This document shows, one piece after another, positions 11,862 through 45,736 of a stretch of 64,000 nt of DNA (positions are counted from its first letter, which is position 1; the number at the start of each line of letters is the position of its first letter). The notes below the pieces were generated by a model. That model did not search any database. It was not told the origin of the DNA and saw only the letters and a program-made list of their open reading frames with translations. The translations under genes and the position numbers were made by a program. The DNA lies in the NCBI RefSeq assembly GCF_029953595.1, contig NZ_CP124535.1, positions 1,706,001-1,770,000 on the forward strand. Direction: 5' to 3'. The stretch is from Fuscovulum ytuae. Lineage in GTDB: Bacteria; Pseudomonadota; Alphaproteobacteria; Rhodobacterales; Rhodobacteraceae.

Positions 11862-12281
11862 ATGATCCGTTTCAACCTGACCTGCGAAAAGGACCATGTC
11901 TTTGACAGCTGGTTTGCGTCAGGCGCGGCCTATGATGCGCTGAAGGCTGCCGGGCATGTCGCCTGCCCGGTTTGCGGATCGACGGCGGTGGAAAAGGCCC
12001 TGATGGCCCCTGCTGTGGCTGTTTCGCGAAAGGAAGAGGCGCCGCTGCGGGGGGCGGACACGCCGGTGGAACAGGCGATTGCCGCGCTGAAGAAGCAGAT
12101 CGAGGAAAATTCCGAATATGTCGGGATGAACTTCGCCGCCGAGGCGCGGCGCATCCATCAGGGGGATGCGCCGGAACGGGCGATCCATGGCGAAACCCGA
12201 CTGGAAGAGGCGAAAAAGCTGATGGAGGAGGGGGTGCCGGTTGCCCCCCTGCCCTTCCTGCCTGCGCGCAAAACAAATTAG
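11862..12281 (+). CDS. DUF1178 family zinc-ribbon-like protein
   Basis: 139 residues, function unknown. The N-terminus MIRFNLTCEKDHVFDSWFAS and the CPVCGS pair, together with the conserved NSEYVGMNFAAEARRIHQGD segment, are diagnostic of DUF1178. Two cysteine pairs (LTC and CPVC) could bind zinc (inference). It follows the NUDIX gene by 96 bp on the same strand, so the two may be cotranscribed. It is probably cytoplasmic: there is no signal peptide. Confidence 0.85.
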   Translation: MIRFNLTCEKDHVFDSWFASGAAYDALKAAGHVACPVCGSTAVEKALMAPAVAVSRKEEAPLRGADTPVEQAIAALKKQIEENSEYVGMNFAAEARRIHQGDAPERAIHGETRLEEAKKLMEEGVPVAPLPFLPARKTN

Positions 12282-12401
12282 GATTGGCCCGCGGACCTGC
12301 CCCGGTTTGTTAACCGTTTTCCCCCGAAAGACCGGACGGTTGCCTCCTGACGGCCATATTCGGCGACAACATTCAAGGCGTGCGAGTGACGGAGCCTTGT
12401 G

Positions 12402-13037
12402 ATGGACCTGTGTGAAAAGATGGATGCGGCGCTGGATCTGGCCGAGCGCGTTTTCCTGACCACCGATCTTGCCTGTTTTGCAGAGGGCACGCGGATCGAG
12501 ACGGCACAGGGTCTCATGGCGGTGGAAGACCTGCGTCCCGGCATGCTGATCGAAACGATGGATCGCGGGCTGCAACCCTTGCGGCGCGTGCTGGCGAAAC
12601 CGGTTTCGGGCATGGGCGCGCTGGCCCCGGTGGTGATCGAGGCGGGCGTCCTTGGCAATGCGCGGGCGTTGCGTCTTTCACCGCACCATCGGATGGTGAT
12701 TTCGGGCTGGCGGGCGGAACTTCTGACGGGTGAGGTCGAAATTCTGGCGGCGGCGCGCGATCTTGTGGATGGTGAGCGTGTGCGTATCGAAGCGGTGGCG
12801 GCGGTGACCTATTTTCACCTGCTGTTCGACCGGCACGAGATCATCTTTGCCGAAGGGGCGGCGACAGAAAGCTATCACCCTTTTGCCGATGATGCGGCGA
12901 CCCTCTCACCCGAGACGATGGCCGAGATCGAGTTGCTGTTTCCCGATCTCGACATTGGCTTCTGGGAAGGCACGCTGCTGGGTGGCACCGTGCGCCCCTG
13001 CGCCGCGCCCGAGGTGGGCGCGCTGCTGCTGGGCTAG
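12402..13037 (+). CDS. Stand-alone Hint-domain protein
   Basis: 211 residues. A Hedgehog/intein (Hint) fold spans about residues 28-160: ACFAEGTRIETAQG holds the potential autocleavage Cys, then LRPGMLIETMDRG, the LSPHHRMVI block and HEIIFAEGAATESYHP. Nothing else is fused to it except about 27 N-terminal residues and a 50-residue tail. Such Hint proteins are frequent in Rhodobacterales and have no assigned function; self-splicing would need biochemical proof. ATG 12402 is used because GGAG lies seven bases upstream; a GTG precedes it by one codon. It ends two bases from the convergent ferredoxin gene. Confidence 0.82.
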   Translation: MDLCEKMDAALDLAERVFLTTDLACFAEGTRIETAQGLMAVEDLRPGMLIETMDRGLQPLRRVLAKPVSGMGALAPVVIEAGVLGNARALRLSPHHRMVISGWRAELLTGEVEILAAARDLVDGERVRIEAVAAVTYFHLLFDRHEIIFAEGAATESYHPFADDAATLSPETMAEIELLFPDLDIGFWEGTLLGGTVRPCAAPEVGALLLG

Positions 13038-13039
13038 GA

Positions 13040-13363
<324 letters not shown>

Positions 13364-13473
13364 TCAAACCCTGCCAGTTTCGCCAGACGCACATTTCCTG
13401 ACGCCCAGATAGGCGATTCCGGGCGGGTTGGCCAGTGGGGTCGGCAGTGCCCATCGTTAAGGTGAACACGCGC

Positions 13474-13556
13474 GCTGTTGCATTTTCTGTCGAAGAATAC
13501 CCTCGGGGGGTGAGGTTCGCCGCGCCGAAAGGGGCAGACACCCCCCCTGCGACGGC
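13474..13556. repeat. Rhodobacterales-type intergenic element, inverted variant
   Basis: The stretch TTTTCTGTCGAAGAATACC followed by CTCGGGGGG and a run of C7 (about 13544-13550) resembles the reverse complement of the element at 7391-7413, with the AT-rich TATT core joined to a G/C block. The similarity is partial. It fills most of the space between the ferredoxin and the OB-fold gene. Confidence 0.35.
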
Positions 13557-13569
13557 GGGGCTGGCAGCC

Positions 13570-13603
13570 TTGCCTTCAGGGGCAGGATGTTCTACTTTTG
13601 TTC
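13570..13603 (+). promoter_or_regulatory. LexA (SOS) box overlapping a candidate promoter
   Basis: GTTC-TACTTTT-GTTC at 13589-13603 is an exact match to the alphaproteobacterial LexA site GTTC-N7-GTTC. A candidate promoter is TTGCCT (13570-13575), 17 bp, TACTTT (13593-13598), so the box covers the -10. The second half-site ends two bases before the ATG at 13606. With that geometry the transcript would begin at or next to the ATG, that is, leaderless. Confidence 0.7.
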
Positions 13604-13605
13604 CC

Positions 13606-14055
13606 ATGTCGCTTTCCGCCCCCCCTTCCCTGACCGACGCCTCTGCCCTGCCCGCGGGGAAATGGCTGGCGCGGGATCGGCGGCCCGGCAGCTGGCCGCG
13701 CCCGCCTGCGGCGCTGGTTGCGGCGCGGTTGGACGAACCGCCGGTTGGTGCGCGGGTCTGCGTGGCGGGGCTGGTCTTGGTGCGGCAAAGGCCGGGCACC
13801 GCCAAGGGGGTGATCTTCGTCACGCTGGAGGATGAGACGGGCACCTGCAATGTGGTGGTCTGGGCCAAGGTCTATGAACGTTTCCGCCGTGCGGTGATCG
13901 CGGGGCGGATGTTGCGGGTGACAGGCCGGGTGCAGCGCGAGGCGGGCGTTGTGCATGTGGTGGCCGAAGGGATTGAGGATCTTTCGCCGATGCTGGATCA
14001 GCTTTTGCGCCCGGATTTCCGGCATGACGGGGTGCGGGCAGCGGATCAGCCCTGA
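13606..14055 (+). CDS. Stand-alone OB-fold protein derived from DnaE2 (ImuC) C-terminus
   Basis: 149 residues. Residues about 48-140 match the C-terminal OB-fold of the error-prone polymerase DnaE2: [57 protein letters not shown]. None of the PHP, palm, fingers or beta-clamp parts of the 1000-residue polymerase is present upstream, and the usual DnaE2 terminal segment is absent. An exact LexA box precedes the ATG. It may be a remnant of an imuA-imuB-dnaE2 cassette kept under SOS control, or a functional single-domain ssDNA-binding SOS protein. The reading frame also continues upstream to 13435 without similarity. Confidence 0.75.
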
Positions 14056-14156
14056 GGGCGGGCGCTGCGGTCTTTCGGGACCGGCCATTTGCCGCTATGG
14101 TGCCACGCCGTGATCCGGGCGAACCGGACAGAATGCAGAGCAGGCAGCGAGGATAG

Positions 14157-14696
14157 ATGAAACGGTCGGTAAAGGTGCTATGCCTTTCGGTGGCGCTCGT
14201 GGCGGGCTGTCAGGCCGGGGGTGTGCCGAAGGCGCCGGGGCAGCTTGATCTGGCGGCCGAGGTGGTGCGGCTAGATCGGCCGGGGCCACCCACGCGGCCA
14301 GAAGGGGCCTGTTGGGAAAAGGACGTGACCCCCGCCGTGATCGAGACGGTGACGGAACAGGTGCTGGTCACCGAGGAGGAGCGGGATGCAGCGGGTCAGG
14401 TGGTGAAACCAGCCACCTATCGCACAGACACCCGCGCGCGGATGGTGCAGGACCGCGAAGAGGTATGGTTCCGCGCGCCCTGCCCTGCCGATTATACGCT
14501 GGATTTCGTGGCAAGCCTGCAACGCGCATTGAAGGCGCGGGGCTATTACCTGCTGCCCCTGACCGGGGCGCTGGATGCCCCCACCCGCGATGCGGTGCGA
14601 CGGTTTCAAGCGGATCGGGGGCTGGACAGCCCGCTTCTGTCGCTTGCGGCGGCGCGCGACCTTGGGCTTTTGCCCACCGCGCTGGACGAGCTTTGA
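14157..14696 (+). CDS. Peptidoglycan-binding-domain lipoprotein
   Basis: 179 residues. A lipobox LVAGC places the lipidated Cys at residue 18, so the protein is membrane-anchored on the periplasmic side. The C-terminal 60 residues (LDFVASLQRALKARGYYLLP, then GALDAPTRDAVRRFQADRGL) form a PGBD-like peptidoglycan-binding domain. The middle part (EVLVTEEERDAAGQV-like, TYRTDTRARMVQDREEVWF) has no assignment. It converges on the degP-like gene across a strong hairpin terminator. Confidence 0.82.
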   Translation: MKRSVKVLCLSVALVAGCQAGGVPKAPGQLDLAAEVVRLDRPGPPTRPEGACWEKDVTPAVIETVTEQVLVTEEERDAAGQVVKPATYRTDTRARMVQDREEVWFRAPCPADYTLDFVASLQRALKARGYYLLPLTGALDAPTRDAVRRFQADRGLDSPLLSLAAARDLGLLPTALDEL

Positions 14697-14700
14697 TGGA

Positions 14701-14732
14701 AAAGGGGCGGCGGGTGATCCCGCCGCCCCTTT
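14701..14732. terminator. Bidirectional terminator between lipoprotein gene and degP
   Basis: A perfect hairpin AAAGGGGCGGCGGG, loop TGAT, then CCCGCCGCCCCTTT, lies between two convergent genes. The flanking A and T runs allow it to work in both directions. Confidence 0.85.
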
Positions 14733-14753
14733 CCGTTCACCCGTAAGACGGGA

Positions 14754-16256
14754 TCACTGTTCTGCCGTCTCTTCTATCGACAGCGCGACAAAGCGCGGGT
14801 CGCCCGCACGGCGCACCAGAAGAAGCAGCGACTTGCGCCCTGCTTCGCGCGCCTCGGTCACGCGGTCTTCCAGATCTTGCAGCCGCGCGACGGGCTGCTG
14901 GCCTGCCTCGGTGATCACGTCGCCTTCGCGCAGACCTTTTCCATAAGCCTCGGACGCCGCGTCGACGGCGGTGACGGCAAGGCCTTCGGTGCCTTCGGGC
15001 AGGCCCAGTTGCTGGGCGATCTCAGCCGTGACCGGGGCCAGCGTCAGGCCCAGAAGTTCAAGGTTCTGGGGTTCAGCAGGCTTTTCGGCGGCAGCGGGGA
15101 TGGCCTCTTCGGCCTCGGCCTCTTCGCGGCGGCCAAGGGTGACGGACAGGGTCGTCGATTTCCCATCGCGCAGCACGATCACCGGGACGGCAGAGCCGAC
15201 CGGGCTGTCGGCCACCTGACGGGTCAGGTCGCGGGAGGAGGCAATGTCGGTGCCGTCGAAGGTGGTGATGACATCACCCGCCTGCATGCCCGCCTCGCGC
15301 GCCGGGCCTTCGGGCACGTCGGTGACAAGGGCACCTGCGGCTTCGGGCAGGCCCATCGCTTCGGCCACATCGGCGGTCACGTCCTGAATGCGGACGCCCA
15401 GCCAGCCACGGCGGGTTTCCCCGAATTCGCGCAACTGATCGACCACCTTGGTCACGACGTTGGAGGCCATCGAAAAGCCGATGCCGATGGAGCCACCATT
15501 GGGCGACAGGATCGCCGTATTCACGCCGATGACCTGACCATCCATGTTGAAGAGCGGGCCGCCCGAATTGCCCCGGTTAATGGCGGCGTCGGTTTGCAGA
15601 TAGTCGTCATAGGTGCCCGACAATTCGCGCCCACGGGCGGAGACGATGCCCGCCGAGACGGAAAAGCCCTGACCCAGCGGGTTGCCCATGGCCATGACCC
15701 AATCGCCCACGCGCATCAGATCGGAATTGCCAAATTGCACGAAGGGCAGCGGTTTGTCCGAGGCGACTTTCAGAAGGGCGATATCGGTCTTGGGGTCCTT
15801 GCCCACGATTTCGGCCTTGAGCCTTTCGCCCGAGAAGAATTCGATCTCCACCTCATCCGCGCCTTCGATGACGTGGTTGTTGGTGACGATATAGCCATCT
15901 TCTGAGATGACGAAGCCCGATCCCAGCGCCTCGGACCGGCGGGGTTCGCGGGGGCCGCCGGGGCCGCCATCGGGATTCATGAAATCACGGAAGAAATCCT
16001 CGAAGGGCGATCCTTCGGGGACCATCGGGCCGCCATCCGCCGGGGCGGCGACCATGGCCGAGGTGGTGATGTTCACGACCGAGGGGCTGATCTGTTCTGC
16101 GAGATCAGCAAAGCTTTCTGGCGCGCCACGCGCGGAGACATCAAGCGCCGATCCCAGCGCAAGCGACATGCCCAGCGCAAGCGCAAGGAAAACGCGGGGA
16201 ACAGCACGCGGAGCCGCCGAAATGCGGGCGGCGGGGGACTGGATTGAGGGATGCAC
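14754..16256 (-). CDS. degP: Periplasmic serine protease, DegP/HtrA (Do) family
   Basis: 500 residues. The protein degrades or refolds damaged envelope proteins. A hydrophobic export signal lies at about residues 20-45. The trypsin-like triad is His128 (TNNHVIEG), Asp158 (KTDIALL) and Ser231 (GNSGGPLF). Two PDZ domains follow (about residues 285-370 and 400-490). The start is a GTG at 16256, because AAAGGAG lies six bases upstream; the frame extends further without similarity. It lies downstream of hflK-hflC-DUF2065 on the same strand, as in many alphaproteobacteria, and the membrane quality-control functions fit together. Confidence 0.92.
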   Translation of the reverse strand: MHPSIQSPAARISAAPRAVPRVFLALALGMSLALGSALDVSARGAPESFADLAEQISPSVVNITTSAMVAAPADGGPMVPEGSPFEDFFRDFMNPDGGPGGPREPRRSEALGSGFVISEDGYIVTNNHVIEGADEVEIEFFSGERLKAEIVGKDPKTDIALLKVASDKPLPFVQFGNSDLMRVGDWVMAMGNPLGQGFSVSAGIVSARGRELSGTYDDYLQTDAAINRGNSGGPLFNMDGQVIGVNTAILSPNGGSIGIGFSMASNVVTKVVDQLREFGETRRGWLGVRIQDVTADVAEAMGLPEAAGALVTDVPEGPAREAGMQAGDVITTFDGTDIASSRDLTRQVADSPVGSAVPVIVLRDGKSTTLSVTLGRREEAEAEEAIPAAAEKPAEPQNLELLGLTLAPVTAEIAQQLGLPEGTEGLAVTAVDAASEAYGKGLREGDVITEAGQQPVARLQDLEDRVTEAREAGRKSLLLLVRRAGDPRFVALSIEETAEQ

Positions 16257-16625: not shown

Positions 16626-17509
16626 GGCGCCGGAACGGCGACGCCCGGCCCGGAGTCAGAGCGGAGGTAATCGAAGAATTCGCTGTCCGGCTGCATGACG
16701 ATGGAGGAATTGCCCGGTTGCAGCGCCCGTTCATAGGATGTGAGCGAGCGTGTGAAGGCGAAGAATTCCGGATCGCGACCGAAAGCTTCGGCATAGATGC
16801 CGTTGCGTTCGGCATCTGCCTCGCCTCGGATGACATCGGCCTGACGGCGCGCGTCGGAGGTGAGTTCGACCACCGTCCGGTCGGCGGCGGCGCGGACGCG
16901 CTGCGCCGCTTCGCCACCGCGGGCGATTTCATCCGCAGCCTCGCGTTCCCGTTCGGCCCGCATCCGGGCGAAGGTCGCCTCGAGGTTCTGGTCGGGCAGG
17001 TCGGTGCGGGTGAGGCGCACGTCGATCACCTCGATCCCCAGGTTGGAAGCCTGGGCGCGGGCGATGTCGCGGATCTGGTTCATCAGTGCGGTGCGGTCTT
17101 CCGACAGGACGCGGTTCGAGTTGACCGAACCCAGAACCTGCTGGATCGCCGGGTTGATGATGCCTTCCAGACGCCGCAGCGCCTGCAATTCGCCGCCCAC
17201 ACCCACGGCCTCGCGGAATTCCACGAGATCGGTGATGCGCCAGCGGGCGAAGGCATCAACGACAAGGCGGCGGTCGTCCAGCATGGTGACTTCGACCGGG
17301 GTCGTGGGCAGGCCGAGGATGCGGCCGTCATAGCGCACCACTTCCTGAATGAGCGGGATCTTGAAGCCCAGACCGGGGTCTTCCTTCACCTGCTTGACCT
17401 GACCGAATTGCAGCACCAGTGCCTTTTCGCGTTCATCGACGATGAAGAGCGAAGACAGGACGGCCGCGCCGAGGATGGCTGCGATGGGAAGAAGGATCGC
17501 GCTTTTCAT
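16622..17509 (-). CDS. hflC: Membrane protease modulator HflC
   Basis: 295 residues. It forms with HflK the large SPFH-domain cage that encloses FtsH at the inner membrane. A single N-terminal transmembrane segment (AILLPIAAILGAAVLSSLFI) is followed by the Band-7/SPFH domain (FIVDEREKALVLQFGQVKQV) and a Glu/Arg/Ala-rich coiled coil (MRAEREREAADEIARGGEAA). Its start ATG shares one base with the hflK stop (TGATG). Confidence 0.95.
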   Translation of the reverse strand: MKSAILLPIAAILGAAVLSSLFIVDEREKALVLQFGQVKQVKEDPGLGFKIPLIQEVVRYDGRILGLPTTPVEVTMLDDRRLVVDAFARWRITDLVEFREAVGVGGELQALRRLEGIINPAIQQVLGSVNSNRVLSEDRTALMNQIRDIARAQASNLGIEVIDVRLTRTDLPDQNLEATFARMRAEREREAADEIARGGEAAQRVRAAADRTVVELTSDARRQADVIRGEADAERNGIYAEAFGRDPEFFAFTRSLTSYERALQPGNSSIVMQPDSEFFDYLRSDSGPGVAVPAP

Positions 17510-18708
17510 CAGTTGCTCGCTCCCGTCGCGGCGGCACCTTGGGCGGGGGCCATGCGGTTGAGTTCATTGAGCGGAAGGAAGGGCACGACGCCCTGACTGC
17601 CGCCTTCACCGTCGGCCACCCCGTCAAGGATAACCTTGTTCATGCCGCCAAAGACTTTTTCCATGGTTTCCAGATACATGCGGCGGCGGGTGACATCCGG
17701 CGCCTTCACATATTCTTCGTAGACCGACAGGAAGCGAGATGCTTCACCCTGTGCCACGTTGACGACCTGCGCGCGGTAGGCTTCGGCCTCTTCCAGCAGG
17801 CGGGCGGCTTCACCCCGTGCGCCGGCGGTGACGCGGTTGGCATAGGCATCCGCCTCGTTCTGGAGGCGTTCGCGTTCCTGCTGGGCGGCCTGCACCTCGC
17901 GGAAGGCGTCGATCACCTCGCGCGGCGGCGCGGCCCGCTGCAGGTTGACGCGGATCACGTTGATCCCGGCGTTATAGCTGTCGAGCGTGCCCTGAACCGC
18001 GGTTTGAAGATCGGAGGCGATGACGCCCCGGTCACGGTTGAGGATGGGCGAAAGTTCCGACCGGGCGATGATGTCGCGCATGGCCGATTCCGAAACGGCG
18101 CGGATCGTGTCATCGGGATCGGCAAGGTTGAAGAGGAAGGCCGCCGGATCGGAGACGTTCCAAACCACCTGAAAGCCGATATCGACGATGTTCTGGTCGC
18201 GCGTCAGCATCAGGCCATCGCCTATGCCGCCATCGCCCACGGCACCGATTTCGGTGGTGCGTTCGCCTGTCACCGACACGATCTCGGCCGAAATGATGGG
18301 CCAAGGCGCGAAGTTCAGACCCGGATTGCCGACGGCGGAAAATTCGCCGAGGAAGAGTTCGACAGAGCGTTCTTCCGGGCGGACCGTGTAGAAGGACATG
18401 AAGGCCCAGAGACCCACGGCTGCCAGCGCACCCAGCATGATACCCTGCTTGGTGATCATCGGGCCGCCGGGATCACGCCCGCCGCCGCCGCCGCCGCCAT
18501 TGAAACCGCCGCGATTCTTGCCGCCCATGAGGACGCGCAGCTGTTCCTGCCCCTTTTTCATGATCTCGTCGATCTCGGGGATCTGCGGGCCGCCTTCGCC
18601 CGGCCTGCGGTTGCCGTTGCGGCGATCATCGCCGCCCCGCCCGCCATTGTTCCGGTCGTCATCGCCGGGGCCGCCACCGCCGCCCCACGGACCTCCGCTT
18701 CCTGCCAT
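17509..18708 (-). CDS. hflK: FtsH protease activity modulator HflK
   Basis: 399 residues. The N-terminal 80 residues are Gly/Asp/Arg-rich and cytoplasmic (including a GGGGGGG run), then a transmembrane helix (GIMLGALAAVGLWAFMSFY), the SPFH domain starting at TVRPEERSVELFLGEF, and a coiled coil. It is the partner of HflC, with a one-base overlap. It starts 77 bp after the gor stop on the same strand, so hflK may have its own promoter or continue from rpiA-gor. Confidence 0.95.
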   Translation of the reverse strand: MAGSGGPWGGGGGPGDDDRNNGGRGGDDRRNGNRRPGEGGPQIPEIDEIMKKGQEQLRVLMGGKNRGGFNGGGGGGGRDPGGPMITKQGIMLGALAAVGLWAFMSFYTVRPEERSVELFLGEFSAVGNPGLNFAPWPIISAEIVSVTGERTTEIGAVGDGGIGDGLMLTRDQNIVDIGFQVVWNVSDPAAFLFNLADPDDTIRAVSESAMRDIIARSELSPILNRDRGVIASDLQTAVQGTLDSYNAGINVIRVNLQRAAPPREVIDAFREVQAAQQERERLQNEADAYANRVTAGARGEAARLLEEAEAYRAQVVNVAQGEASRFLSVYEEYVKAPDVTRRRMYLETMEKVFGGMNKVILDGVADGEGGSQGVVPFLPLNELNRMAPAQGAAATGASN

Positions 18709-43073: not shown

Positions 43074-44429
43074 ATGTCCAAATGGACCGAGAAACTGCCC
43101 GAAGCGGCGCGCGATTGGATCGCGGGGCGTCGCGTGGACGAGGTGGAATGCATCATCGGCGACATCGCCGGGGTGGCGCGGGGCAAGGCGATGCCTGCCT
43201 CGAAATTTGCCAAACAGACCAGTTACTTCCTGCCCAATTCGATCTTTCTGCAAACGATCACTGGGGAATGGGCTGACAATCCTGCGGGGTCTTTCACGGA
43301 ACCTGACATGATCCTTGTGCCCGACTTTTCCACCGCCACTGCGGCCCCGTGGACGGCGGATGTGACGTTGCAGGTCATCCATGACGCGCAGGATCAGGCC
43401 GGGAACCCCGTGCCCACCGCTCCGCGCAATGTCCTGAAGCGGATCGTGCAGCTTTACAATGCCGAAGGCTGGCAGCCCATCGTTGCGCCCGAAATGGAAT
43501 TCTTCCTTGTTGCGCGCAACATCGACCCGAATATGCCGATCATCCCGCCCATGGGTCGATCAGGCCGCCGCGCAGCCGGCAAACAGGCCTATTCGATGAG
43601 CGCGGTGGACGAATACGGCAAGGTTATCGACGACATCTATGATTTCGCCGAGGCGCAGGGGTTTGAAATTGACGGCATCCTTCAGGAAGGCGGGGCGGGC
43701 CAGATCGAGATCAACCTTGCCCATGGCGACCCTGTGGCACTGGCGGATGAGATTTTCTTCTTCAAGCGGCTGATCCGCGAGGCGGCGCTGCGGCATGACT
43801 GTTTTGCCACCTTCATGGCCAAGCCCATTGAAGGCGAACCGGGAAGCGCCATGCATATCCACCATTCCGTGGTGGATGCGAAAACCGGGAAGAACATCTT
43901 TTCCGACAAGAAGGGTGGCGAGACGCCCGAATTCCTGCATTTCATCGCGGGCATGCAGACCCATCTGCCAGCGGCCGTGGCACTGCTTGCCCCTTACGTC
44001 AACAGCTATCGCCGCTATGTCCCCGACTTTGCCGCGCCCATCAACCTTGAATGGGGCCGGGACAATCGCACCACGGGGCTGCGCGTTCCGATTTCGGGGC
44101 CAGAGGCGCGGCGACTGGAAAACCGCCTCGCGGGGATGGATTGCAACCCCTATCTGGGGATCGCGGCCAGCCTTGCCTGCGGTTATCTGGGGCTGAAGGC
44201 GGGTAAGATGCCCCGCGCGGAATGCACCGAGGATGCCTATAACATGGAATCCGACCTGCCCTATAACCTTGGCGATGCGCTGGACCTTTTGGAAGAGGAT
44301 GCTTCCCTGCGCGAGGTGCTGGGGGTGGAGTTCTGCAATGTCTATGACAGCGTGAAGCGGAACGAATACAAAGAGTTCCTGCAAGTCATCAGCCCGTGGG
44401 AGCGGGAGCACCTGCTGCTGAACGTCTGA
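43074..44429 (+). CDS. Second glutamine synthetase-family gamma-glutamyl-amine ligase
   Basis: 451 residues. GS domains are visible: VECIIGDIAGVARGKAMPAS, IVAPEMEFFLVARN, GAGQIEINLAHGDP, AMHIHHSVVDAKTGKNIFSD, NSYRRYVPDFAAPINLEWG and NRTTGLRVPISGP. It shares the overall fold with the gene at 40896 but is a distinct paralogue, so the pair may act on different amines. It ends with TGATG: its stop shares a base with the next start. Confidence 0.87.
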   Translation: MSKWTEKLPEAARDWIAGRRVDEVECIIGDIAGVARGKAMPASKFAKQTSYFLPNSIFLQTITGEWADNPAGSFTEPDMILVPDFSTATAAPWTADVTLQVIHDAQDQAGNPVPTAPRNVLKRIVQLYNAEGWQPIVAPEMEFFLVARNIDPNMPIIPPMGRSGRRAAGKQAYSMSAVDEYGKVIDDIYDFAEAQGFEIDGILQEGGAGQIEINLAHGDPVALADEIFFFKRLIREAALRHDCFATFMAKPIEGEPGSAMHIHHSVVDAKTGKNIFSDKKGGETPEFLHFIAGMQTHLPAAVALLAPYVNSYRRYVPDFAAPINLEWGRDNRTTGLRVPISGPEARRLENRLAGMDCNPYLGIAASLACGYLGLKAGKMPRAECTEDAYNMESDLPYNLGDALDLLEEDASLREVLGVEFCNVYDSVKRNEYKEFLQVISPWEREHLLLNV

Positions 44430-45736
44430 TGCCGATGAACCTTCTGCATGCCAATGACCGGGCGGGGGAATATCCCCCGTCCTATTACGCGGCCACAAGG
44501 GCCGCGTTCGGCCCCCTGCCCCCGTTGCAGGGGGCGGCGCGGGCCGATGTCTGTATCGTGGGCGGTGGCTATACGGGCCTGTCTGCCGCGCTGCATCTGG
44601 CGCAGCGGGGTCTGAAGGTGATCGTGCTGGAGGCGCATCGCGTGGGCTTTGGCGCGTCGGGCCGCAATGGCGGGCAGGTGGGCAGCGGTCAAAGGCTGGA
44701 TCAGGATGCGCTAGAGGCGGCGGTCGGGCTGGCCGATGCCAAAAAGCTGTGGGATTTCGCGGAAGAGGCGAAGGACATGGTGCGCGGGCTGATTGCGGAC
44801 CATGACATGCCGGTGCGGTTTTATCCCGGCATCGCCCATGCCTGTTGGAGCGACAGCGAGGTGCGCCATGCGGCGGCCTATGCCGAAAAGCTGCGCCGCG
44901 ATTATGGCTATGATCAGTTGGAACCCCTGTCGCGCGAAGGGATCGGGCGGCTGATCCCGTCGGGCGTCTTTGCCGGGGGAGAGGTGGACCGGGGCGCGGG
45001 CCATGTGCATCCCCTGAATTATGCCATCGGACTGGCGCAGGCGGCGGGGGCGGCGGGGGCGGTGATCCATGAAGGGTCCGAGGTGACAGGCACCCAGCAA
45101 GGTGCGCGGCCCGTGGTGACGACGGCCCAAGGCCATGTGACCTGCGATCACCTGATCCTTGCCTGCAACGGTTACTTGGGCGGGCTAGAGCCGCAGGTGG
45201 CGGCCCGCGTGATGCCGATCAACAATTTCATCGTCGCGACCGAACCCTTGGGCGACCGGGCGAAGGAGGTTCTGGCCGAACCCGTCGCCGTGGCGGATAC
45301 GAAATTCGTGGTGAATTACTGGCGCCTGTCCGAGGATGGGCGGCTGTTGTTCGGGGGAGGCGAAAGCTATGGCTATCGGTTCCCCGACATCATCAAGACG
45401 GTGCGGAAACCGATGCTGGAGGTCTATCCCGCACTGCGCGACGTGAAGATTGACCATGCTTGGGGCGGGACGCTGGCCATCACCATGACGCGCAACCCCT
45501 GTTTCCTGCGGGTGGCACCGAATGTCCTGTCGGCTTCGGGCTATTCGGGGCATGGTGTGGCCATGGCCACGCTGGCGGGCCGTATTCTGGCCGAGGCGGT
45601 GTCAGGACAGGCGGAACGCTTTGACCTGATGGCCCGGCTGCCCACGCCGCGCTTTCCCGGTGGGGTGGCCCTGCGCTGGCCGATGCTAGTTCTTGCGATG
45701 ACATGGTATTCGATGCGCGACAGGTTGGGGCTGTAG
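44429..45736 (+). CDS. puuB: FAD-dependent gamma-glutamylputrescine oxidase-like protein
   Basis: 435 residues. It is a DAO-family flavoprotein: ADVCIVGGGYTGLSAALHLA is the FAD-binding GxGxxG, GFGASGRNGGQVGSGQRLDQ matches the PuuB-type oxidases, and ASGYSGHGVAMATLAGRILA is the C-terminal FAD motif. PuuB oxidises gamma-glutamylputrescine to the aldehyde. Its start overlaps the preceding ligase stop by one base (TGATG); ATG 44435 is an alternative. Confidence 0.87.
   Translation: MPMNLLHANDRAGEYPPSYYAATRAAFGPLPPLQGAARADVCIVGGGYTGLSAALHLAQRGLKVIVLEAHRVGFGASGRNGGQVGSGQRLDQDALEAAVGLADAKKLWDFAEEAKDMVRGLIADHDMPVRFYPGIAHACWSDSEVRHAAAYAEKLRRDYGYDQLEPLSREGIGRLIPSGVFAGGEVDRGAGHVHPLNYAIGLAQAAGAAGAVIHEGSEVTGTQQGARPVVTTAQGHVTCDHLILACNGYLGGLEPQVAARVMPINNFIVATEPLGDRAKEVLAEPVAVADTKFVVNYWRLSEDGRLLFGGGESYGYRFPDIIKTVRKPMLEVYPALRDVKIDHAWGGTLAITMTRNPCFLRVAPNVLSASGYSGHGVAMATLAGRILAEAVSGQAERFDLMARLPTPRFPGGVALRWPMLVLAMTWYSMRDRLGL

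What the first reader, a model, noticed from the sequence alone, without database searches (positions are those of the whole stretch)
13570..14055. SOS-box-controlled stand-alone DnaE2 OB-fold gene, probably leaderless
The ORF 13606-14055 carries only the OB-fold of the error-prone polymerase DnaE2 ([36 protein letters not shown]). Directly before the ATG is GTTC-TACTTTT-GTTC, an exact match to the alphaproteobacterial LexA site, overlapping a promoter TTGCCT-17-TACTTT whose predicted start is at the ATG. Known: imuA-imuB-dnaE2 cassettes are LexA-regulated. Inference: either a cassette deletion left the LexA promoter fused to the last domain of dnaE2, or a single-domain ssDNA-binding protein has been recruited to the SOS response. 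Its position beside the ferredoxin gene, with no other mutasome gene in the window, makes it unexpected.
Basis: partly seen in the sequence, partly recalled or inferred. Interest (0 to 1): 0.78.

Follow-up and report, generated by a model that had tools for sequence, protein, structure and literature searches.

The report
DNA-damage polymerase split into two genes
In a large family of bacteria the mutation-making polymerase DnaE2 has given up its last domain to a separate small gene elsewhere in the genome, and both genes carry the same kind of DNA-damage switch, so the polymerase probably works as two proteins that are made together.

Summary
The window gene (13606-14055) is the OB domain of DnaE2 (profile positions 944-1040). 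The rest of DnaE2 (positions 4-939) is an intact 940-aa gene 1.46 Mb away in the same genome: a split DnaE2, not a remnant. Split bodies form one clade nested among fused forms. Of 58 family genomes with a cut DnaE2, 56 show the separate OB gene; the other two look like assembly gaps. It was found in 0 of 63 fused-only genomes and 0 of 11 without DnaE2. On a DnaE1 tree OB and body go the same way in 14-15 of 15 independent pairs. LexA-type boxes precede 123 of 128 distinct OB genes and 56 of 58 bodies. Imu genes lie at two further boxed loci. Best explanation: an SOS-induced OB subunit acting in trans in a scattered ImuA-ImuB-DnaE2 mutasome. The split and boxes are shown by sequence; the interaction is inferred. 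One complete genome (G051) keeps OB without a body. Two surveys, read in passages, do not describe it.

The parts
13606..14055 (+). stand-alone DnaE2 OB-domain gene (149 aa)
   Evidence: orthologues; dN 0.107 / dS 0.697 against the same-genus orthologue
13717..14007 (+). stretch homologous to DnaE2 profile positions 944-1040 (OB domain)
   Evidence: protein residues 38-134; predicted five-stranded OB barrel, block means of pLDDT 93-97 over residues 31-130 except 71 at 61-70
13589..13603 (+). LexA-type box GTTC-N7-GTTC; its middle bases double as the -10 element
   Evidence: exact box in 123 of 128 distinct OB genes
13570..13575 (+). -35-like TTGCCT, 17 bases before TACTTT
   Evidence: in the profile of 104 boxed loci (window's own included, not thinned) T is 92% at -18 and G is 85% at -16 from the box start
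13593..13598 (+). -10-like TACTTT, 7 bases between it and the ATG (predicted leaderless start)
   Evidence: conserved TATNTT and spacing; no RNA data
13040..13363 (-). divergent 2Fe-2S ferredoxin gene; conserved neighbour that marks the site
   Evidence: PF00111; divergent and within 2 kb in 122 of 128 OB loci, found divergent in 36 of 37 matched genomes

Best explanation
The gene is the OB domain of the error-prone polymerase DnaE2, moved out of the polymerase gene into its own gene beside ferredoxin in an early ancestor within this family (Rhodobacteraceae by the titles of the relatives). The polymerase body, ending right before the OB domain, stayed as a separate gene. In this genome both halves, and the imuA-like and imuB genes, each carry a LexA-type box. 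When LexA is inactivated after DNA damage, the scattered genes should be induced together. The OB protein then binds the DnaE2 body, or ImuB beside it, and supplies in trans the nucleic-acid-binding contact that is covalently attached in other DnaE2s. Shown by sequence: the split, one clade of split bodies, co-retention and co-loss, boxes on both halves, purifying selection. Inferred: LexA binding, leaderless transcription, physical association, ssDNA binding, role in lesion bypass.
For: Profile positions 4-939 (body) and 944-1040 (window gene) are complementary in one genome. The 39 split bodies in the tree form one clade, SH-aLRT 98 (quick tree, no bootstrap), nested among fused DnaE2s. Of 58 genomes with a cut DnaE2, 56 have a separate OB gene. 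A separate OB gene was found in 0 of 63 fused-only and 0 of 11 DnaE2-free genomes. The two exceptions look like gaps: in G044 only a 44%-identical ferredoxin paralogue was found, and G064's contig ends 222 bases past ferredoxin. Independent pairs on the DnaE1 tree: 14-15 of 15 the same way, 0 opposite, p 6e-5 to 1.2e-4. OB and body distances correlate beyond DnaE1 distance: partial r 0.63, 0 of 2000 permutations, 35 genomes. LexA-type box (up to 1 mismatch in 8) before 56 of 58 bodies against 10 of 197 control windows. Both halves boxed in 35 of 37 matched genomes. ImuB relative at 54% identity or more in 20 of 20 genomes of the split kind (own and G051 included), none at E 1e-20 in 11 DnaE2-free genomes.
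Against: No expression, binding or structural data. G051 (rated 100% complete, 7 contigs) keeps a boxed OB gene and ImuB but has no DnaE2 body. Five of 128 OB genes have no box (L013, L014, L018, L042, L229). Two of 58 bodies have none (G083, G033). The basal split genome G083 has no box on either half, and its OB gene is not beside ferredoxin. The OB protein does not keep the SRDF[H/R] motif of fused DnaE2s as a conserved feature. A complex of body and OB could not be modelled here (single chains only). LexA itself was not looked for in the window's genome.
Confidence: 0.8

Rival explanations
1. The detached OB domain has taken an independent job in the SOS response (ssDNA protection, clamp or ImuB partner, signalling) and no longer works with the DnaE2 body.
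For: G051 keeps a boxed OB gene and ImuB without a body. OB folds commonly bind ssDNA (recalled). The structural matches listed are OB-fold proteins such as Asp/Asn/Lys-tRNA synthetases, RPA, CST and ExoVII (50 of 258 matches with E up to 0.001 seen).
Against: G051 apart, no separate OB gene was found in examined genomes without the split body: 0 of 63 fused-only, 0 of 11 DnaE2-free. Co-loss in 14-15 of 15 independent pairs. Rates follow those of the body.
Confidence: 0.13
2. Remnant of a deleted imuA-imuB-dnaE2 cassette, on the way to becoming a pseudogene.
For: Only the last domain is at this site; the promoter carries a LexA-type box.
Against: Intact body, imuB and imuA-like genes elsewhere. 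dN/dS about 0.15. Same site in 122 of 128 loci.
Confidence: 0.02
3. The two halves are rejoined by protein trans-splicing, as in cyanobacterial DnaE (recalled).
For: A DnaE-type polymerase split in two genes; a Hint-domain gene lies at 12399-13037 near the OB gene.
Against: The own body ends a few residues after the conserved end of the core, and no intein family was reported in the OB protein (Pfam, E up to 1) or the body (E up to 0.001). The Hint gene was found near the OB gene in only 2 of 65 loci.
Confidence: 0.02

Closest known systems
ImuA-ImuB-DnaE2 (ImuC) mutasome, LexA-regulated cassette (passages of PMC3919608, PMC12926913, PMC3323433)
   Same: DnaE2-type polymerase core, Y-family ImuB-like protein, ImuA-like protein, LexA-type boxes
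   Different: Here the genes are scattered over the chromosome and DnaE2 itself is cut before its OB domain, which is a fourth, separately boxed gene
DnaE2 sequences that lack the OB domain (PMC3919608, passages)
   Same: [quoted passage not shown] the split bodies fit that description
   Different: The passages seen do not say that the missing OB domain is encoded elsewhere, conserved and boxed
Putative split ImuB (iPolY plus stand-alone ImuB-C) in DnaE2X systems (PMC12926913, passages)
   Same: A mutasome component divided over two proteins
   Different: There ImuB is divided, here the polymerase
Split DnaE of cyanobacteria (recalled, no call)
   Same: C-family polymerase encoded in two places
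   Different: Those halves are joined by a split intein; no intein halves were found here

Membership tests
DnaE2 C-terminal OB domain | matches the DnaE2 profile over the OB region better than other DnaE profiles | tested here: met
   NF004225 110 bits at 944-1040; the next DnaE profile 31 bits
DnaE2 C-terminal OB domain | covalently attached to the polymerase core | tested here: not met
   core is a separate 940-aa gene matching up to profile position 938-939
DnaE2 C-terminal OB domain | C-terminal SRDF[H/R] motif (about 77% of DnaE2s, PMC3919608) | tested here: not met
   window protein has PDFRH at residues 136-140, but residues 138-141 fall in columns gapped in 59-66% of 128 relatives; most of the 30 fused DnaE2s of the family end in SRDFH
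ImuA-ImuB-DnaE2 mutasome | DnaE2 polymerase core present | tested here: met
   1205 bits against a cut-off of 939
ImuA-ImuB-DnaE2 mutasome | ImuB-type Y-family homologue present | tested here: met
   IMS domain 69.5 bits against 23.2, 553 aa; in 12 of 12 fused genomes its best match lies within about 0.55 kb upstream of dnaE2
ImuA-ImuB-DnaE2 mutasome | ImuB is catalytically inactive | not tested
   active-site residues were not compared
ImuA-ImuB-DnaE2 mutasome | ImuA | tested here: inconclusive
   NF033429 33.9 bits against a cut-off of 150; boxed 217-aa gene
ImuA-ImuB-DnaE2 mutasome | genes form a cassette | tested here: not met
   own genome: OB 1.72, imuA-like 1.84, imuB 2.22, body 3.18 Mb. 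In some relatives imuB lies near the body, about 0.6 kb away in G031
ImuA-ImuB-DnaE2 mutasome | proteins form a complex and act in induced mutagenesis | not testable with these tools
   needs binding and mutation assays
alphaproteobacterial LexA regulon | GTTC-N7-GTTC operator at the promoter | tested here: met
   motif as stated in PMC3323433
alphaproteobacterial LexA regulon | LexA binding and induction by DNA damage | not testable with these tools
   no expression data; the genome's lexA gene was not searched for
split-intein DnaE | intein halves at the break | tested here: not met
   no intein family in the OB protein (E up to 1) or the body (E up to 0.001); body tails

The most novel reading that the evidence does not exclude
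DnaE2 in this family is a two-subunit polymerase whose OB domain became a separately regulated, possibly limiting part. LexA shuts the leaderless OB promoter by sitting on its -10 element, so assembly of the error-prone enzyme has its own switch. The OB subunit may also serve ImuB or other polymerases, which would explain its survival without the body in G051.
Probability: 0.25. Interest if true: 0.85.

Novelty: new variant of a known kind. Interest (0 to 1): 0.66.

Why it matters
The OB domain is nearly universal in C-family polymerases (detected in at least 97%, PMC3919608), and its job in DnaE2 is, as far as I know, unclear. A natural separation, old and kept across the family, makes the question testable: delete only the OB gene and see whether lesion bypass fails. 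It also warns that truncated DnaE2 entries can be one half of a split enzyme, and that an SOS mutasome can be scattered over a chromosome yet share one switch.

Tried and rejected
Rejected: cassette-deletion remnant (intact body; selection). Rejected: assembly error or frameshift, because the same break occurs in 58 family genomes and the halves lie 1.46 Mb apart. Rejected: trans-splicing. No sign of phage or plasmid origin: 1 of 50,697 phage records matched (41% identity). In 830 plasmid records with a match no place covers 80% of the query; of the 25 listed, 21 lie in genes annotated as error-prone DNA polymerase, 3 records have no annotation and 1 place has no feature. No Rfam family at 12000-16000 at gathering scores. 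The sequence search of solved structures gave only weak hits, best DNA polymerase III alpha chain 2hpi at E 0.09.

Rows dropped or reclassified. G009's 'cut' DnaE2 is a record-end artefact: the body runs to the contig end and the OB lies at the contig start, so L164 was counted as fused. One search used 65 fused-only genomes, of which G119 and G022 were not examined for a separate OB frame; the figure reported is 0 of 63. G078, G142, G098 and G095 (fragments) were not classified. G061, G068 and G118 (drafts) have an OB gene but only body fragments, mostly at contig ends, and were not counted. Of the 11 'DnaE2-free' genomes 6 were checked down to E 1e-5 and 5 (G053, G069, G019, G102, G127) only at 1e-230. 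G044 and G064 were left out of the independent-pairs test. G133 gave no DnaE1 match and is not in that tree; I chose the 73 genomes for it by DnaE2 class. The first box count (90 of 110) was wrong because 17 loci lay on the other strand; redone. L078's box had been missed through a narrow search range, so its protein is too long at the start. In one search the OB of G083 (L221) was left out, as were ten identical proteins: 139 to 128. The Fisher test ignores shared ancestry; the test that allows for it is, on a quick tree with open forks and long branches; without four long rows it gave the same result. G083 and G133 were left out.

Literature: in ten searches no listed title or abstract start describes a split DnaE2; several lists were capped (for example 15 of 89, 10 of 77, 10 of 71, 12 of 74). 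Passages seen: PMC3919608 (also outline and abstract), PMC6473078, PMC12926913, PMC9426580, PMC6511836, PMC3323433, PMC1839093. No paper was read whole, supplements could not be opened, and most subscription papers are not held.

Full report
What the window holds. The ORF at 13606-14055 encodes 149 aa. It is an OB-fold protein (PF01336, E 3.1e-14) that matches the DnaE2 profile NF004225 over positions 944-1040 of 1047, with 110 bits; the next DnaE profile scores 31. The exact LexA-type box GTTCTACTTTTGTTC lies at 13589-13603, two bases before the ATG, and overlaps a TTGCCT-17-TACTTT promoter. One such box in a window is not significant (2 found, 1.45 expected), so the weight rests on conservation.

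The rest of the polymerase. Searching the window's own genome with the DnaE2 profile gives three places: a gene at 3178807 matching positions 4-939 with 1205 bits (cut-off 939), a DnaE1-like gene (600 bits), and the window gene. The first encodes 940 aa and ends in EDYVSLRLTLRAHPMALLRPWLTPEVA; the window gene picks up at position 944. The two are complementary halves 1.46 Mb apart. The body is preceded by its own box, GTTCCTATAATGTTC, 46 bases before its ATG.

How common it is. In 149 genomes drawn from the family, 126 have a DnaE2 match at E 1e-230 or better. Fifty-eight have one that ends near position 938 or at a stop soon after; the others are full length or fragments (tallied; G035 has both kinds). 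All 58 cut bodies were then read, and none has an OB domain following. Fifty-six of the 58 have a separate OB gene. Of the two exceptions, G044 shows only a 44%-identical ferredoxin paralogue, and G064's contig ends 222 bases past ferredoxin, so both are best read as assembly gaps. A separate OB gene was found in 0 of 63 genomes with only fused DnaE2, where every match lay inside a long polymerase frame except one record-end artefact in G009, and in 0 of 11 genomes without DnaE2. G051 is a true exception: an OB gene and ImuB but no body. Outside the family, a draw of 144 class genomes has DnaE2 in 69 genomes of other families; 68 reach the OB region and one (G373) is undecided because its match stops at 915 inside a 1133-aa frame.

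History. In a tree of 90 DnaE2 cores the 39 split bodies form one clade (SH-aLRT 98; one change of state), nested among fused forms, with fused G004 as sister (quick tree, midpoint root). That fused is ancestral follows from the fused forms across the class. On a DnaE1 tree of 72 genomes, split, fused and DnaE2-free genomes are interspersed, so the split system was probably present early in the family and then lost or replaced many times. The OB gene follows the body: 14-15 of 15 independent pairs go the same way and none the other way, p 6e-5 to 1.2e-4; the same without four long-branch rows. Distances of OB and body correlate beyond DnaE1 distance: partial r 0.63, 0 of 2000 permutations as high, 35 genomes. 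dN/dS of the OB gene against its same-genus relative is about 0.15 (0.107/0.697), like the body's 0.061/0.434.

Regulation. Among 128 distinct OB genes, 122 had an exact box (one of them, L011, in reverse orientation) and one more (L078) was found: 123 of 128. The start codon lies 17 bases after the box start in 85 and 16-18 bases in 108 of the 128. The base profile of 104 boxed loci shows TATNTT inside the box and a conserved TTG/TGG about 16-17 bases upstream, which fits a leaderless promoter with LexA on its -10; no RNA data exist here. Five OB genes lack a box; one of these genomes (G147, L018) still has a box before its body. Bodies carry a box with at most 1 mismatch in 8, mostly of the GAACAAAA type, within 100 bases of the aligned start in 56 of 58 (38 of 39 without L164, 18 of 19), against 10 of 197 control windows. 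Both halves are boxed in 35 of 37 matched genomes. LexA itself was not searched for in the window's genome; the motif is the alphaproteobacterial one according to PMC3323433.

The other mutasome genes. In the window's genome an imuA-like gene (weak, 33.9 bits against a cut-off of 150) with box GAACAAAAAGTGAAC, and an imuB-type gene (IMS domain 69.5 bits) with box GAACAAAGAGTGAAC, lie at 1.84 and 2.22 Mb. ImuB of this type (54% identity or more) was found in 20 of 20 genomes of the split kind, counting the own genome, G051, G044 and G064. In 12 fused genomes the best match is 40-52% and lies just upstream of dnaE2; in 11 DnaE2-free genomes there is none at E 1e-20. Scattering is not complete everywhere: in G031 imuB is about 0.6 kb from the body.

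Structure. AlphaFold2 on an alignment of 59 sequences (the window's and 58 of 80 orthologues at hand) gives an OB barrel that is confident over most of residues 31-130; the first 20 residues have pLDDT below 50 on average. Foldseek's listed matches are OB-fold proteins such as aspartyl- and asparaginyl-tRNA synthetases, RPA, CST and ExoVII (50 rows seen); these show the fold, not the function.

Mechanism. Most likely the OB protein is a separately made subunit of DnaE2, induced with the body and the Imu proteins, acting in trans (0.8). The rival that it has an independent SOS job (0.13) rests mainly on G051. A remnant and trans-splicing are each held at 0.02.

Novelty. The 2013 survey of C-family polymerases notes that several DnaE2s lack the OB domain (PMC3919608, passages). 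In the 2026 survey a search of the main text for 'OB domain' and 'OB-fold' found nothing (PMC12926913). In ten paper searches, some with capped lists, no listed title or abstract start describes a split DnaE2. I rate it a new variant of a known kind.

Noticed in passing
L221 (G083 C42) and L151 (G083 C48): Basal split genome: the OB gene is not beside ferredoxin, has no box, and still carries an old-looking linker and a worn HPRDQSKLLF tail; the body has no box either. Independent split, intermediate or decay.
   Followed up: partly
L198 (G051 C4:2078500-2089000): Boxed OB gene in a genome rated 100% complete that has an ImuB (on the same contig, 43375-44967) but no DnaE2 body.
   Followed up: partly
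L152, L167, L185 (split bodies): Body tails end in HPRNVRFFS, HPRAVRHFS and HPRSVRHFG, like the HPRNVRIIPKSRDFH end of fused DnaE2; the OB domain may have been cut out from between body and tail.
   Followed up: partly
L013, L014, L018, L042: OB genes without a LexA box that keep a CTAGACT- or CTAGAGT-like -10 close before the ATG: possible escape from SOS control.
   Followed up: partly
window 12399-13037: Hint_2-domain gene next to ferredoxin; found near the OB gene in only 2 of 65 relatives.
   Followed up: yes
window 17857-17871: Second exact GTTC-N7-GTTC, inside the ORF 17509-18708 of the other strand; expected by chance.
   Followed up: no
G009 C2 (L164): Fused DnaE2 that seems to run across the two ends of a contig of 217,585 bases and so looks split in linear searches.
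   Followed up: partly
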